Shown: piece by piece, positions 48,802 to 57,356 of the stretch
Layout: each line of letters opens with the position of its first letter
Position numbering within the stretch: position 1 is the stretch's first letter
Source of the DNA: Bacteroidia bacterium
GTDB taxonomy: Bacteria > Bacteroidota > Bacteroidia > J057
Direction: 5' to 3'
Length of the DNA stretch: 64,000 nt
Assembly: GCA_030430205.1 (NCBI GenBank)
Contig: JAUIGE010000012.1
Span: 1 to 64,000 of the forward strand
Program-made: the position numbers and the translations under genes
Notes under the pieces: model-generated
What the model saw: the letters and a program-made list of their open reading frames with translations, nothing else
Database searches by the model: none
What the model was told of the DNA's origin: nothing

Positions 48802-50142
48802 ATGCCAGCGAAATTGACCCAATCAGAACAACTTCTGGAAAGGCGTAAAAATGTGGTAGCCAATGGTGTGGGTGTATTCAATACTGCCACAGCCCGCGAG
48901 GCAAAAGGTGCCATTATAATCGATGAAGACGGCAGGGAGCTCATCGATTTTGCAGGAGGTATAGGGGTAGTCAATGCGGGGCATTGCCCGGAGCCCGTGG
49001 TAGCGGCGATTCGTGAGCAGGCAGGTAAATACCTGCACACCAGCTTCAATGTGGTCACCTATGAACCCTATGTTGAGCTTTGTGAAAGGCTTACAGAGAT
49101 TTTGCCACATGGCGAAAAAACCAAGGCCATGCTTGTCTCGACAGGTGCCGAGGCCGTGGAGAATGCGATAAAAATCGCACGACAAGCCACCCAGAGGCAG
49201 GCGGTTCTCTGCTATACAGGTGCTTTTCACGGTCGTACCATGATGGCCATGACGCTTACGAGTAAGATAAATTACAAACTCAATTGTGGGCCTTTTGTGC
49301 CGGAAGTCTATCGTTTGCCTTTTCCCAATTTTTATCGCTATGGGCAGGGTAAAGACCGGGATACTTTTGTAAAAGAAGAGTTGAAACGTCTGCACGAAAG
49401 TTCGCACAACCTGGTAGACCCCAATAACCTGGCCGCGATCATTATAGAGCCGGTACAGGGCGAGGGAGGGTTTAATCCGGTACCTAAAAAGTACCTGGAA
49501 GGTCTGCGAAAATATTGCGATGATTTTGGAATCATGCTCATCATGGATGAAATCCAAAGTGGCTTTGGCCGCACAGGCTATTGGGCCTCCTGGCAACACT
49601 ATGATGTGGTGCCCGACATCAGCACATACGCCAAATCTCTTGGCTCAGGGATGCCCATCGCAGCTATAGTAGGCCGTGCAGAGGTCATGGATACAGCAGC
49701 ACCAGGTACCATAGGCGGGACTTATATTGGAAACCCCGTATGCTGTGCAGCAGCCCTGGCCACCATACAAATGATTAAAGATGAAGACCTCAACGGACGG
49801 GCCATGAAAATAGGGGGGATTTTAAAAAAGCATTATAAAAAGATGAAAGAAACATGCTCCGAAATCGGGGATGTTCGTGGCATGGGAGCAATGGTTGGGA
49901 TTGAATTTGTCAAAGGGGGAGATTCCCGACAGCCTGATGGAGAGCTTTGCAGCCGCATCCTTAAAGGATGTAGCGATCAGGGGCTGGTGCTGCTCAGCGC
50001 AGGCACTTTTAAAAATATTATCCGAATTCTGGCACCTCTCGTGATTACAGAGCCCCAGTTGGAAAAAGGGATGCAAATCCTGGATGCGGTAATCAAAGCA
50101 GAAATAGCAAAAAATAACAAAATAGAGTTCCAGAAAATATGA
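48802..50142 (+). CDS. Class III PLP aminotransferase (GABA/putrescine-type)
   Basis: 446 residues of fold-type I PLP class III. Visible: DEDGRELIDFAGGIGVVNAGHCPEPVVAAIREQ, SFNVVTYEPYVELCERL, VSTGAEAVENAIKIAR, CYTGAFHGRTMMAMTLTSK, EPVQGEGGFNPVP, IMDEIQSGFGRTG and the PLP lysine K278 in TYAKSLGSGMP. Near relatives are 4-aminobutyrate, putrescine and ornithine aminotransferases. It is the first gene of a tight six-gene operon; its stop overlaps the next start by 4 bp. The expected reaction is removal of a terminal amino group from a polyamine or omega-amino acid to give an aldehyde, with 2-oxoglutarate or pyruvate as acceptor. Confidence 0.92.
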   Translation: MPAKLTQSEQLLERRKNVVANGVGVFNTATAREAKGAIIIDEDGRELIDFAGGIGVVNAGHCPEPVVAAIREQAGKYLHTSFNVVTYEPYVELCERLTEILPHGEKTKAMLVSTGAEAVENAIKIARQATQRQAVLCYTGAFHGRTMMAMTLTSKINYKLNCGPFVPEVYRLPFPNFYRYGQGKDRDTFVKEELKRLHESSHNLVDPNNLAAIIIEPVQGEGGFNPVPKKYLEGLRKYCDDFGIMLIMDEIQSGFGRTGYWASWQHYDVVPDISTYAKSLGSGMPIAAIVGRAEVMDTAAPGTIGGTYIGNPVCCAAALATIQMIKDEDLNGRAMKIGGILKKHYKKMKETCSEIGDVRGMGAMVGIEFVKGGDSRQPDGELCSRILKGCSDQGLVLLSAGTFKNIIRILAPLVITEPQLEKGMQILDAVIKAEIAKNNKIEFQKI

Positions 50143-51041
50143 AACCATTTACCATAGCAGGGATCCAAATGAAAGTTTCAGCTACTCAATCCAATCTGGA
50201 GATGATGAAGCTGAAACTTGATATAGCCATGAATATTTATCCATCTGTACAGATGGTGATGTTCAGTGAATTATGCGCATACGGGCCTTTGACTTATTAT
50301 GCACAGGAATTTCCCGGAGTTTTTGAAAGTGAAATGCAGGCCATGGCCAAAAAGTATGGTATCTGGCTGCTCCCGGGTACTGTCTTTGAGAAATCAGAAG
50401 GCAAGATTTACAATACCGCATCAATCATCAACCCACAGGGTGAGGTCGTGAAACGCTACCGCAAGATGTTCCCTTTTTATCCTTATGAAGAAGGAGTGAC
50501 TCCGGGAAATGAATTTTGTTTGTTCGATGTTCCGGAGGTCGGCCGGTTTGGAGTTTCGATTTGTTACGATATGTGGTTTCCTGAAACAGTCAGAACCCTC
50601 GCCGTTATGGGAGCAGAAGTCATCCTGCATCCTACCATGACAGGGACCATGGACCGTGAGATCGAGCGATCGATAGATCAAACGATGGCGGCCGTGAATC
50701 AGTGTTACTTTTTTGACATCAATGGCCTGGATTCAGGCGGTATAGGTCGTTCTGTGGTCTGTGGGCCCGATGGCAGGGTCCTGTATGAAGCAGGTGCAAC
50801 CGAGGAAATCATTCCTATAGAGATCAATATTGAGCGGGTGAAGCGAAGCCGTGAACTGGGCGTCTTGCGCCTGGGACAACCCCTCAAAAGCTTTAGGGAT
50901 CACATGGGGGATTTTGGAATATACCAGGCAGGGGCAGAGCACCCATATCTCGAATCTCTGGGCGAATTAATTAAACCAACCAAACTGGATAACCTGACTG
51001 CTCTCAAGCAGAAAGAAAGCGACATTCAATTTAAAATTTAA
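50139..51041 (+). CDS. Carbon-nitrogen hydrolase (nitrilase superfamily) amidase
   Basis: 300 residues with the nitrilase-superfamily triad: Glu in MVMFSELCAYG, Lys in RYRKMFPFYPYEEG and Cys142 in GVSICYDMWFPE. Relatives hydrolyse amides such as N-carbamoylputrescine, omega-amides or free amide groups. It overlaps the aminotransferase gene by 4 bp and precedes the decarboxylase by 4 bp, so it works in the same pathway. In an amine-protection pathway it could free the amino acid from the acyl group added by the ATP-grasp ligase; as N-carbamoylputrescine amidase it would need an agmatine deiminase, which is not present here. Confidence 0.9.
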   Translation: MKPFTIAGIQMKVSATQSNLEMMKLKLDIAMNIYPSVQMVMFSELCAYGPLTYYAQEFPGVFESEMQAMAKKYGIWLLPGTVFEKSEGKIYNTASIINPQGEVVKRYRKMFPFYPYEEGVTPGNEFCLFDVPEVGRFGVSICYDMWFPETVRTLAVMGAEVILHPTMTGTMDREIERSIDQTMAAVNQCYFFDINGLDSGGIGRSVVCGPDGRVLYEAGATEEIIPIEINIERVKRSRELGVLRLGQPLKSFRDHMGDFGIYQAGAEHPYLESLGELIKPTKLDNLTALKQKESDIQFKI

Positions 51042-51045
51042 CCCC

Positions 51046-55997: not shown

Positions 55998-56000
55998 AAA

Positions 56001-57356
56001 ATGATATTTCACAGCATAAACCCCTACAACGGCCAGCAAATAGGCCAATTTACCGCCCATACAGAGGCTGAAACCCGGCAGATGCTGGATCGCGCACAAA
56101 GCGCCTTCACTTCCTGGCGCGAAGTCCCCATTGCCCAACGGGCAATATTGATGAAGAGAGCAGGACAGCTCCTGCGAGATCAGGTGGAAGACCATGCGCG
56201 CATGATTACCCTTGAGATGGGCAAGCCCATCAAGGAGTCCCGCGCCGAGGTCAATAAATGTGCCTGGGTCTGTGATTATTATGCCGATAATGCAGCCCAG
56301 TTCATGAAGGATGAGCACATCAATACGGATGCACAAAAAAGCTTTGTGAAGCATGACCCCATCGGCTGCGTGCTGGCAATCATGCCCTGGAATTTTCCTT
56401 TTTGGCAGGTTTTTCGCTTTGCTGCGCCCACCTTGATGGCAGGAAATACCGGCATACTCAAGCATGCACCCAATGTCTTTGGCTGTGCCAGACAGATCGA
56501 GGAAGTCTTTCTAAAGGCAGGATTTCCCCCAGGTGTTTTTCAAAACCTGATTGTTCATCATGACAAGACCGAAAGCATCATCGCTCACAAGGCCATCAAA
56601 GCGGTCACGCTTACAGGTAGTGAGAGAGCGGGTTCGGCTGTGGCAGAAATTTCGGGTCGCTATATCAAAAAAAGCTTGTTGGAGTTGGGCGGAAACAACG
56701 CCTTTATCGTCTGGGAAGACGCAGATATAGATGCAGCTGTCAAAACTGCGCTCACGGCGCGCATGCTCAACTGCGGCCAAAGTTGCATCGCTGCCAAGCG
56801 CTTTATCCTGCTGGAAGGCATTTACGATGAATTTGTGGAAAAATTCACTGCGGCTGTTCGCAGCCTGCAATCAGGGGATCCCCTGTCAGAATCCACCCAG
56901 GTCGGGCCCCTGGCCCGCAAAGACCTGGCAGATCAGCTACAGCGACAAGTCGCTGGATCTATCGATGCCGGAGCAAGATTGCTCCTGGGGGGCAAACAGC
57001 GGGAGGCATATCACGAACCCACCATCCTGGGTAATGTCAAGCCTGGGATGCCAGCCTTCGATGAAGAGACCTTCGGGCCGCTTGCGGCCATGATCCGCGC
57101 CAAAGACGAGGCGGAAGCCTTTGCTCTTTCTGAGTTGTCAGAGTTTGGTTTGGGTGTAACCGTCTGTACCACAGACGTTAAGCGGGCATTGGCTTGCGCA
57201 GATCAGGTAAGCGATGGCGCTTACTTCATCAACGAGCTCGTTAAATCGGACCCGCGCCTGCCTTTTGGCGGCGAAAAACGATCCGGCTACGGGCGGGAAC
57301 TCGCCCGGGACGGCATGATGGAGTTTGTGAATCGTAAGACGATTTATGTGAAGTAG
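56001..57356 (+). CDS. NAD(P)-dependent aldehyde dehydrogenase (succinate semialdehyde-type)
   Basis: 451 residues, ALDH superfamily: IMPWNFPFWQVFRFAAPTLMAGN, VTLTGSERAGSAVAEISGRYIKKSLLELGGNNAF (general base Glu), and the catalytic Cys262 in NCGQSCIAAKRF, then EEPFGPLAAM-like EETFGPLAAMIRAKD and the C-terminal LPFGGEKRSGYGRELARDG. The length and the form of the substrate pocket recall the Sad/YneI succinate semialdehyde dehydrogenases. It starts 3 bp after the previous gene and ends the operon. It should oxidise the aldehyde formed by the aminotransferase to a carboxylic acid. Confidence 0.93.
   Translation: MIFHSINPYNGQQIGQFTAHTEAETRQMLDRAQSAFTSWREVPIAQRAILMKRAGQLLRDQVEDHARMITLEMGKPIKESRAEVNKCAWVCDYYADNAAQFMKDEHINTDAQKSFVKHDPIGCVLAIMPWNFPFWQVFRFAAPTLMAGNTGILKHAPNVFGCARQIEEVFLKAGFPPGVFQNLIVHHDKTESIIAHKAIKAVTLTGSERAGSAVAEISGRYIKKSLLELGGNNAFIVWEDADIDAAVKTALTARMLNCGQSCIAAKRFILLEGIYDEFVEKFTAAVRSLQSGDPLSESTQVGPLARKDLADQLQRQVAGSIDAGARLLLGGKQREAYHEPTILGNVKPGMPAFDEETFGPLAAMIRAKDEAEAFALSELSEFGLGVTVCTTDVKRALACADQVSDGAYFINELVKSDPRLPFGGEKRSGYGRELARDGMMEFVNRKTIYVK

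What the first reader, a model, noticed from the sequence alone, without database searches (positions are those of the whole stretch)
48802..57356. Six-gene amine catabolic operon with an ATP-grasp ligase: possible new acylated-polyamine route
Order: class III aminotransferase, nitrilase-fold amidase, Orn/Lys/Arg decarboxylase, ATP-grasp ligase, unknown, aldehyde dehydrogenase, with gaps of -4 to 12 bp. The enzyme types match the logic of the gamma-glutamylated putrescine (Puu) pathway: make the amine, protect it with an acyl group, transaminate, oxidise, release with an amidase. The ligase is ATP-grasp instead of glutamine-synthetase-like PuuA, and the amidase is nitrilase-fold instead of PuuD. 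Together they may be a non-homologous version of that pathway, feeding GABA/succinate or 5-aminovalerate/glutarate from ornithine, arginine or lysine. Inference from context; each fold call is solid.
Basis: partly seen in the sequence, partly recalled or inferred. Interest (0 to 1): 0.68.

Follow-up and report, generated by a model that had tools for sequence, protein, structure and literature searches.

The report
GABA operon with unknown amide ligase
A six-gene bacterial operon, found as a conserved cassette in several phyla, appears to burn the amino acid GABA to succinate while also making and breaking an unidentified amide bond, and its decarboxylase probably does not make polyamines as first thought.

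Summary
In detail: six tightly packed same-strand genes (48802-57356; spacings -4, 4, 12, -1, 3 bp) encode a class III aminotransferase, nitrilase-fold amidase, Orn/Lys/Arg-fold decarboxylase, ATP-grasp ligase, unknown protein and aldehyde dehydrogenase. It is a conserved cassette: of 54 relatives with full flanks, 51 keep aminotransferase, amidase, decarboxylase and ligase, and 53 link ligase to an amidase. Most add a C45 Ntn-hydrolase and a VOC protein that the window lacks.

The polyamine reading is weakened. The decarboxylase has lost residues shared by E. coli lysine, arginine and ornithine enzymes (E663->Q, G154->R, 71 of 71); plasmid cousins sit beside AspT-type antiporters; the aminotransferase has GABA-transaminase residues; the dehydrogenase is Sad-like.

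Best reading: a GABA-shunt operon (acidic amino acid to GABA to succinate) with a ligase and amidase that make and cleave an amide of GABA or glutamate. Substrates are inferred. The decarboxylase's nearest solved relative is the orphan Rv2531c. Ten literature searches found no description. New variant of a known kind.

The parts
48802..50142 (+). class III aminotransferase, GABA-transaminase type (446 aa)
   Evidence: Aminotran_3 400 bits; TIGR00700 GABA-AT 483.6 bits, cut-off 506.65; GabT I50/R141/E211/R398 kept; of 7 class III hits in the genome the only one whose best family is GABA transaminase
50139..51041 (+). nitrilase-superfamily amidase (300 aa), catalytic E44-K109-C142, and E149
   Evidence: CN_hydrolase 109.6 bits; E44 and K109 in 66 of 66 aligned rows, C142 and E149 in 65 of 66, one row a gap; no NCBIfam cut-off reached
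51046..53802 (+). PLP decarboxylase of the Orn/Lys/Arg fold, Rv2531c type (918 aa), PLP lysine K565
   Evidence: OKR_DC_1 270 bits; full-length match to PDB 9n0n/9n0o, 787 bits; pocket changes at I313, R315 and Q860
53815..55287 (+). ATP-grasp ligase, NF005096/PRK06524 family, named 'biotin carboxylase' (490 aa)
   Evidence: 793 bits, cut-off 684; model pLDDT 85; nearest folds PylC, PurK and biotin carboxylase, tied; E314, N316 and R318 invariant in 36 of 36
55287..55997 (+). unknown accessory protein (236 aa from GTG; an ATG lies at 55293)
   Evidence: no Pfam or NCBIfam match; model pLDDT 79 with no PDB match at E<=0.001; relatives in L033 (same place, 64%) and L037 (37%, after the dehydrogenase); not conserved
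56001..57356 (+). aldehyde dehydrogenase, Sad/succinate-semialdehyde type (451 aa)
   Evidence: Aldedh 446 bits; best NCBIfam PRK09406 SSADH 511 bits, cut-off 730; best PDB matches are succinate-semialdehyde dehydrogenases; 46.6% to E. coli Sad

Best explanation
A GABA-shunt operon with a built-in amide ligase and amidase. The Rv2531c-type decarboxylase turns an acidic amino acid, most likely glutamate, into GABA. The aminotransferase turns GABA into succinic semialdehyde and the aldehyde dehydrogenase oxidises that to succinate. The ATP-grasp ligase joins GABA (or glutamate) to an unidentified partner as an amide, and the nitrilase-fold amidase (joined in most relatives by a C45 Ntn-hydrolase) splits that amide again. 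Shown here by sequence: folds, operon, conservation, the ligase-amidase link, retained catalytic residues, loss of residues shared by the basic-amino-acid enzymes, GABA-transaminase residues. Inferred: all substrates, the direction, and the partner of the amide.
For: GABA tail: GABA-AT residues in 57-58 of 58; only class III enzyme of the genome whose best family is GABA-AT; Sad-type dehydrogenase; locus L072 carries an SSADH over its cut-off (723.6 vs 646.35) in its place. GABA source: none of the genome's three PF00282 hits reaches the glutamate decarboxylase cut-off (matched stretches scanned); the decarboxylase has lost E663 and gained an Arg. Cousins without the ligase: 15 of 18 plasmid records have an AspT-type antiporter within 300 bp (positions compared); the three AspT proteins scored pass TIGR03802; all five such loci opened show it. 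The three of these decarboxylases aligned share the R and Q, as does the solved protein. Glutamate-making genes nearby: FMN glutamate synthase family gene in Roseobacter, glutamate dehydrogenase family genes at four of five ligase-bearing rhizobial loci opened. Amides of omega-amino acids: beside decarboxylase-ligase-C45 in R. leguminosarum lie relatives of 6-aminohexanoate cyclic-dimer and dimer hydrolases (5e-73 and 2e-56). Where the decarboxylase is not in the ligase cluster, three plasmids put ligase and C45 inside an operon that I read as arginine to GABA.
Against: I found no activity reported for any member. The aminotransferase and dehydrogenase stay under their NCBIfam cut-offs. AspT-linked decarboxylases are only 43% identical to the window's; in two of the five opened loci AspT has an aspartate 4-decarboxylase beside it and may serve that enzyme instead. 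For three S. meliloti records no AspT was seen (one opened; 40 of 64 AspT records were listed). AspT exchanges aspartate for alanine in its namesake (recalled), so aspartate to beta-alanine or alanine is as open as glutamate to GABA. The Phyllobacterium aminotransferase is not of the GABA-AT type, and its SSADH is under cut-off (598 vs 646). A close ALDH is missing from 26 of 54 full loci, 10 of which have a distant ALDH. L080 has only VOC, decarboxylase and ligase. Nine other ALDH hits exist in the genome and only one was typed. A 72%-length nitrilase match on an Ensifer plasmid lies near a 5-guanidino-2-oxopentanoate decarboxylase gene, without the ligase. NylA/NylB similarity is to broad families.
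Confidence: 0.4

Rival explanations
1. One reading: ornithine, lysine or arginine is decarboxylated to a diamine, the ATP-grasp ligase acylates it, aminotransferase and dehydrogenase oxidise the free end, and the amidase releases the omega-amino acid: a non-homologous Puu pathway.
For: Ligase and amidase linked in 53 of 54; Orn/Lys/Arg fold; the ligase's top fold match, tied, is PylC, which joins an ornithine derivative to lysine (chemistry recalled); E. coli sad lies beside the putrescine regulator ptrR; another class III enzyme of the genome scores 292 of 612 bits for putrescine aminotransferase, so such an activity elsewhere is not excluded.
Against: Residues shared by the basic-amino-acid enzymes are lost; GABA-AT residues, not PatA residues; only one aminotransferase-dehydrogenase pair where Puu needs two oxidations plus GABA removal; cousins beside AspT.
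Confidence: 0.17
2. Ligate, then decarboxylate: the ligase makes a gamma-glutamyl amide, the decarboxylase turns it into a GABA amide, and the amidase frees GABA and the amine; the amine is recycled or is the real substrate.
For: Uses each enzyme of the window (gene 5 apart) once; the decarboxylase has lost a carboxylate and gained an Arg; decarboxylases acting after a ligation are known in siderophore pathways (PMC8503589, passage); decarboxylase and ligase lie within 600 bp in 70 of 78 loci.
Against: AspT-linked cousins with the same R and Q presumably act on a free amino acid; in Shinella-type loci the ligase cluster lacks the decarboxylase.
Confidence: 0.15
3. Protected ornithine route: arginine gives ornithine, the ligase protects its delta-amine, the alpha-carboxyl is removed (by the decarboxylase and a transaminase here, by racemase, D-amino acid dehydrogenase and a ThDP decarboxylase in Shinella), the aldehyde is oxidised, and the amidases release GABA.
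For: In Shinella, Roseateles and Sinorhizobium RAC02 ligase and C45 sit inside a gene run with a racemase-arginase fusion, D-amino acid dehydrogenase, 5-guanidino-2-oxopentanoate decarboxylase family enzyme and agmatinase family enzyme; scored for Shinella: 737 bits (cut-off 500) and 212 (174) for the last two, 393 of 480 for ornithine racemase. In the ligase tree these three group with rhizobial loci that have the decarboxylase.
Against: Roseateles XES5 also carries a decarboxylase of this type elsewhere on the same plasmid, so it was not simply replaced; the window's aminotransferase is GABA-AT type.
Confidence: 0.15
4. Biosynthesis of a secreted or stored amide: the decarboxylation product is joined to a second molecule and C45/nitrilase act as acyltransferases or turnover enzymes; on rhizobial symbiosis plasmids the product would be re-imported and eaten, as rhizopines are (recalled).
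For: In R. leguminosarum Vaf10 the genes start about 1 kb from nifH and are followed by a peptide-type ABC importer and NylA/NylB-like hydrolases; Cupriavidus necator N-1 has importer, nitrilase, ligase and C45.
Against: The Bacteroidota cassette carries catabolic-looking GABA-AT and Sad-type enzymes; no family outside the cassette recurs in more than 9 of the 83 loci clustered, so no standard exporter or tailoring gene.
Confidence: 0.13

Closest known systems
Puu (gamma-glutamylated putrescine) pathway of E. coli
   Same: logic of an ATP-dependent amide ligase, an aldehyde dehydrogenase, an amidase and a GABA transaminase leading to GABA and succinate
   Different: ligase is ATP-grasp, not glutamine-synthetase-like; amidase is nitrilase (plus C45 in relatives), not PuuD; no PuuB-like oxidase in the cluster; decarboxylase and aminotransferase residues do not point to putrescine
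GABA shunt (GAD, GabT, GabD/Sad)
   Same: GABA-AT-type aminotransferase and Sad-type dehydrogenase in one operon with a PLP amino acid decarboxylase
   Different: decarboxylase is of the Orn/Lys/Arg fold, not GAD (PF00282); a ligase and amidase are added
Rv2531c of M. tuberculosis (PDB 9n0o; 9n0n and 9n0p bear the same molecule name)
   Same: full-length relative of the decarboxylase, 787 bits, with the same Arg and Gln
   Different: its activity is unknown (PMC12910592, passages); its genome context was not examined here
NCBIfam NF005096 / PRK06524 'biotin carboxylase'
   Same: the ligase belongs to it (793 bits, cut-off 684)
   Different: the name implies biotin carboxylation, for which the cluster has no partner proteins
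PylC, PurK, carnosine synthase and other ATP-grasp ligases
   Same: fold of the ligase (PylC and PurK); PylC makes an amide on a basic amino acid and carnosine synthase joins beta-alanine or GABA to histidine (both recalled)
   Different: 8-15% sequence identity to PylC and PurK in the fold alignments; carnosine synthase was not compared here

Membership tests
Puu pathway | glutamine-synthetase-fold ligase PuuA | tested here: not met
   ligase is ATP-grasp by family and fold
Puu pathway | PuuD-type hydrolase and PuuB-type oxidase in the cluster | tested here: not met
   six genes typed: none is of either type (gene 5 has no match at all); the rest of the genome was not searched for them
Puu pathway | putrescine as substrate | not testable with these tools
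   needs assay
Orn/Lys/Arg decarboxylases | PLP lysine and the Asp of the DxAW motif | tested here: met
   STHK and DEAW in the window protein
Orn/Lys/Arg decarboxylases | PGHxGG motif and the Glu of the GE motif shared by CadA, LdcC, AdiA and SpeF | tested here: not met
   H152->I 70/71, G154->R 71/71, E663->Q 71/71; their role in substrate binding is inferred, not tested
PRK06524 (NF005096) | score over curated cut-off | tested here: met
   793.2 bits, cut-off 684
Biotin carboxylase | carrier protein and carboxyltransferase partners in the cluster | tested here: not met
   none among the five typed genes of the window or the two extra cassette families, C45 and VOC
Biotin carboxylase | biotin-dependent carboxylation | not testable with these tools
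   needs assay
GABA transaminase | I50, R141, E211, R398 of E. coli GabT (roles recalled) | tested here: met
   58, 57, 57 and 58 of 58 relatives; the window protein has all four
GABA transaminase | TIGR00700 cut-off | tested here: not met
   483.6 bits, cut-off 506.65; relatives L072 496.1 and L013 481.4
Succinate-semialdehyde dehydrogenase | NCBIfam cut-off | tested here: not met
   window protein 511 of 730 (PRK09406) and 330 of 646 (TIGR01780); the enzyme in its place in L072 scores 723.6 of 646.35
Glutamate decarboxylase (PF00282 type) | PF00282 match | tested here: not met
   decarboxylase matches OKR_DC_1, with no PF00282 match at E<=0.01
Nitrilase superfamily | Glu-Lys-Cys catalytic residues | tested here: met
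   E44 and K109 66/66, C142 65/66 with one gap
AguB, aliphatic amidase, formamidase and other named nitrilases | NCBIfam equivalog cut-off | tested here: not met
   best 82.7 bits, cut-off 410

The most novel reading that the evidence does not exclude
A previously undescribed branch of GABA metabolism: an Orn/Lys/Arg-fold decarboxylase that has switched to an acidic amino acid (the family of the orphan Rv2531c) feeds an ATP-grasp ligase that makes a new omega-aminoacyl (GABA) amide, which dedicated nitrilase and Ntn amidases take apart. On rhizobial symbiosis plasmids, in one case beside nif genes, the same module with an importer and relatives of the nylon-oligomer hydrolases would make and harvest such an amide as a rhizopine-like currency, giving the Nyl enzymes a natural substrate class.
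Probability: 0.22. Interest if true: 0.82.

Novelty: new variant of a known kind. Interest (0 to 1): 0.57.

Why it matters
A cassette kept in order in Bacteroidota, Ignavibacteriota and Gemmatimonadota contigs (with partial loci in Balneolota and Calditrichota; many are metagenome-assembled), and in other arrangements on plasmids of Pseudomonadota including legume symbionts, has no assigned chemistry that I could find and is annotated misleadingly ('biotin carboxylase', 'ornithine decarboxylase'). If right, it gives a testable substrate class for the orphan Rv2531c-type decarboxylases, predicts a new GABA amide, and suggests what NylA/NylB-like hydrolases may do in nature.

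Tried and rejected
Protected-polyamine (Puu-like) reading: not excluded but demoted, for the decarboxylase, aminotransferase and AspT reasons given. A middle version (Shinella-type protected ornithine) looked best until the AspT contexts were seen and a decarboxylase was found elsewhere on the Roseateles plasmid.

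Biotin carboxylase: rejected as a description; no partner proteins in the cluster, and biotin carboxylase, PurK and PylC tie in fold score. Carnosine synthase did not appear among the 50 rows shown, which says nothing against kinship.

AguB or ordinary agmatine route: nitrilase far under the AguB cut-off (82.7 of 410). A separate GABA pair elsewhere in the genome: the class III aminotransferase plus dehydrogenase at G000:C60 is a methylmalonate-semialdehyde-type dehydrogenase (516 of 448 bits for TIGR01722) with a PRK06062-type transaminase; the other eight ALDH hits outside the window were not typed. The genome has one C45-family gene elsewhere, G000:C80, and one arginase-family gene under the agmatinase cut-off (157 of 174); neither was pursued.

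Gene 5: the structure model had no PDB match. PADLOC gave nothing for gene 5 or the ligase and only a weak RTasNitrilase match (18.7 bits) for the nitrilase. Promoter/terminator scan: 8 promoter-like sites against 12.9 expected and 14 terminator-like against 9.4, uninformative. Neighbour families outside the cassette occur in at most 9 of the 83 loci clustered; those typed look like local neighbours, apart from an amino acid permease inside the operon of L062, L064 and L084, with a fragment of it before the ligase in L066.

Literature: ten searches listed no paper on the cassette; terms were my own and only open-licence PMC papers are held. Seen: passages of PMC12910592, PMC7268258, PMC8503589 and PMC12484125, and sections 4 and 11 of PMC8503589; other papers only as search listings. 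The Rv2531c structure paper (PMC12329521) is not held.

Full report
WHAT IS THERE. Six genes on the + strand run from 48802 to 57356 with spacings of -4, 4, 12, -1 and 3 bp. Upstream is a 217-bp gap to the previous + strand ORF of 100 aa or more; downstream a - strand ORF abuts the operon at 57357. Pfam and NCBIfam types: class III aminotransferase, carbon-nitrogen hydrolase, Orn/Lys/Arg-fold decarboxylase, ATP-grasp enzyme of family NF005096 (793 bits, cut-off 684), unknown, aldehyde dehydrogenase.

IT IS A CONSERVED CASSETTE. Mean column identity in an alignment of 36 ligases is 76%. Of 80 loci, 54 have at least 8.5 kb upstream and 3.5 kb downstream of the ligase. In these 54, counting same-strand matches, the decarboxylase is present in 54, aminotransferase in 51, nitrilase in 51, a VOC-family gene in 41, a C45 Ntn-hydrolase in 39, a close ALDH (45% identity or more) in 28, a distant ALDH in 10, gene 5 in 2; nitrilase or C45 is present in 53. 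Commonest order: aminotransferase, nitrilase, VOC, decarboxylase, ligase, C45, ALDH (21 of 54). The window lacks VOC and C45 and carries gene 5 where C45 usually sits. C45 keeps its cysteine and RNYD motif in 14 of 14 aligned; the nitrilase keeps E44 and K109 in 66 of 66, C142 and E149 in 65 of 66 with one gap.

PATCHY SPREAD. In one draw of 296 genomes of the phylum, own genome included, the ligase is in 4 and the decarboxylase subtype in 5: the same 4, and G192, where the gene runs into a contig edge. Of 119 relatives searched, own genome included, 8 have the ligase; the 12 other genomes of the window's genus and family that the call lists have none. In the ligase tree the window pairs with Persicitalea (99/95), with Calditrichota and Ignavibacteriota rows nearby. 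Horizontal spread is an inference.

THE DECARBOXYLASE IS NOT AN ORDINARY BASIC-AMINO-ACID ENZYME. Its best solved relatives are PDB 9n0n and 9n0o, 787 bits over nearly the full length. 9N0O is Rv2531c of M. tuberculosis, whose activity is unresolved (PMC12910592, passages). Against E. coli CadA, LdcC, AdiA and SpeF, the PLP lysine and DxAW aspartate are kept. Of 123 columns identical in the four E. coli enzymes, the commonest family residue is the same in 69. Changes include CadA H152->I (70/71), G154->R (71/71) and E663->Q (71/71). The E. coli enzymes have PGHxGG and GE there; the rows shown have P-[IVL]-[SA]-R-G (one rhizobial row AISRK) and GQ. That these residues touch the side chain is my inference. 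PMC8503589 (sections 4 and 11) reports that many homologues of this fold are unlikely to be arginine, ornithine or lysine decarboxylases; in those sections I saw no mention of a 900-residue group.

COUSINS SIT BESIDE ACIDIC-AMINO-ACID ANTIPORTERS. In the plasmid collection 39 records match the decarboxylase at E<=1e-60 and 32 the ligase at E<=1e-30. By my comparison 21 records have both and 18 the decarboxylase alone. Of the 18, 15 (10 Ensifer, 3 Rhizobium, Phyllobacterium, Rhodobacter) have an AspT-like gene within 300 bp (positions). For the other three, all S. meliloti, none was seen: one was opened and is rich in IS elements, and only 40 of 64 AspT records were listed. Five of the 15 were opened and all show aspT; two of them also have an aspartate 4-decarboxylase, which AspT may serve instead. 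The three AspT proteins scored pass TIGR03802. The three AspT-linked decarboxylases aligned carry the same R and Q and are 43% identical to the window's. This suggests an acidic substrate, glutamate or aspartate.

THE TAIL IS GABA TO SUCCINATE. The aminotransferase family keeps GabT I50, R141, E211 and R398 in 58, 57, 57 and 58 of 58; PatA has F50 and K141. The window protein is 43.1% identical to GabT and 31.2% to PatA and falls short of TIGR00700 (483.6 of 506.65). Of the genome's seven class III hits the others type as ornithine transaminase, two ArgD-like (under cut-off; one also 292 of 612 bits for putrescine aminotransferase), HemL, PRK06148-like and PRK06062-like. The dehydrogenase is 46.6% identical to E. 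coli Sad and its best PDB matches are succinate-semialdehyde dehydrogenases, but it is under every cut-off. In L072 a GabD-type enzyme (63.7% to E. coli GabD; 723.6 of 646.35 bits) stands in its place. Caution: in S. meliloti, GabD-type enzymes also take 4-aminobutyraldehyde and 4-guanidinobutyraldehyde (PMC7268258, passages). The genome's three PF00282 hits do not reach the glutamate decarboxylase cut-off (best 59.5 of 380; matched stretches scanned).

LIGASE AND AMIDASES. The ligase model (pLDDT 85) is nearest, with tied scores, to PylC (Z 22.1), PurK and biotin carboxylase (21.7 each). In Pseudomonadota the module varies. Roseobacter: gabT, FMN glutamate synthase family gene, nitrilase, decarboxylase, ligase, C45, importer. 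In five ligase-bearing rhizobial loci opened, decarboxylase and ligase are neighbours in all five (a small hypothetical ORF between them in L098 and L103); C45 and the importer follow in four and are missing in L098. In L103 the genes lie next to nifHDKEN, and the amidase and serine hydrolase of that locus have 6-aminohexanoate cyclic-dimer and dimer hydrolases as best PDB matches. C. necator N-1: importer, nitrilase, ligase, C45 without the decarboxylase. Shinella, Roseateles and Sinorhizobium RAC02: ligase and C45 inside what I read as an arginine-to-GABA gene run, with the nitrilase nearby on the other strand. In the plasmid collection the nitrilase occurs in 8 records at E<=1e-50, 7 of which hold the ligase. 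The thread through these contexts is GABA, glutamate or arginine and amide cleavage, hence the best explanation; the partner of the amide is unknown.

CONFIDENCE BY STEP (my estimates). Operon and families 0.97; conserved cassette 0.97; aminotransferase as GABA-AT 0.75; dehydrogenase as SSADH 0.65; decarboxylase on an acidic amino acid or its derivative 0.55; ligase makes an amide 0.75; that amide contains GABA or glutamate 0.5; whole scheme 0.4.

NOVELTY. Every enzyme family here is known by fold, gene 5 apart, and the ligase family has a curated but misleading name. None of my ten searches listed a paper on the cassette. New variant of a known kind.

Noticed in passing
L098, L099, L103, L104, L105 (rhizobial plasmids): Decarboxylase and ligase neighbours, in four of five with C45 and a peptide-type importer, in one case next to nifHDKEN; NylA/NylB-like hydrolases follow in L099, L103 and L104: looks like a rhizopine-style make-and-eat module.
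   Followed up: partly
plasmid hits H25-H32: Eight S. medicae and S. meliloti plasmids match only 42-47% of the ligase, several as two hypothetical proteins: apparently decaying copies.
   Followed up: no
L105:12001-14635: R. leguminosarum CB782 carries two ligase-like stretches in tandem (50% and 43% to the window's).
   Followed up: no
E. coli K-12 ldcC-yaeR (L109:1180-3767) and the VOC gene before the decarboxylase in 41 of 54 relatives: A VOC-family gene sits beside an Orn/Lys/Arg-fold decarboxylase in both; the meaning is unknown.
   Followed up: no
window 55287-55997: Gene 5 is an orphan with a fairly confident model (pLDDT 79) and no PDB match; a 32% relative lies in genome G072, which lacks the ligase.
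   Followed up: partly
window 58998-60071 (-): An ApbE-like protein (by eye) ends in a tail of near-repeats KPETRNP/KPETQNP, as if a DNA repeat had run into the gene.
   Followed up: no
L012, L053, L056, L060: A gamma-glutamyltransferase family gene lies upstream of the cassette in four loci, Psychroflexus where named (cluster c21; L012 copy over cut-off).
   Followed up: no
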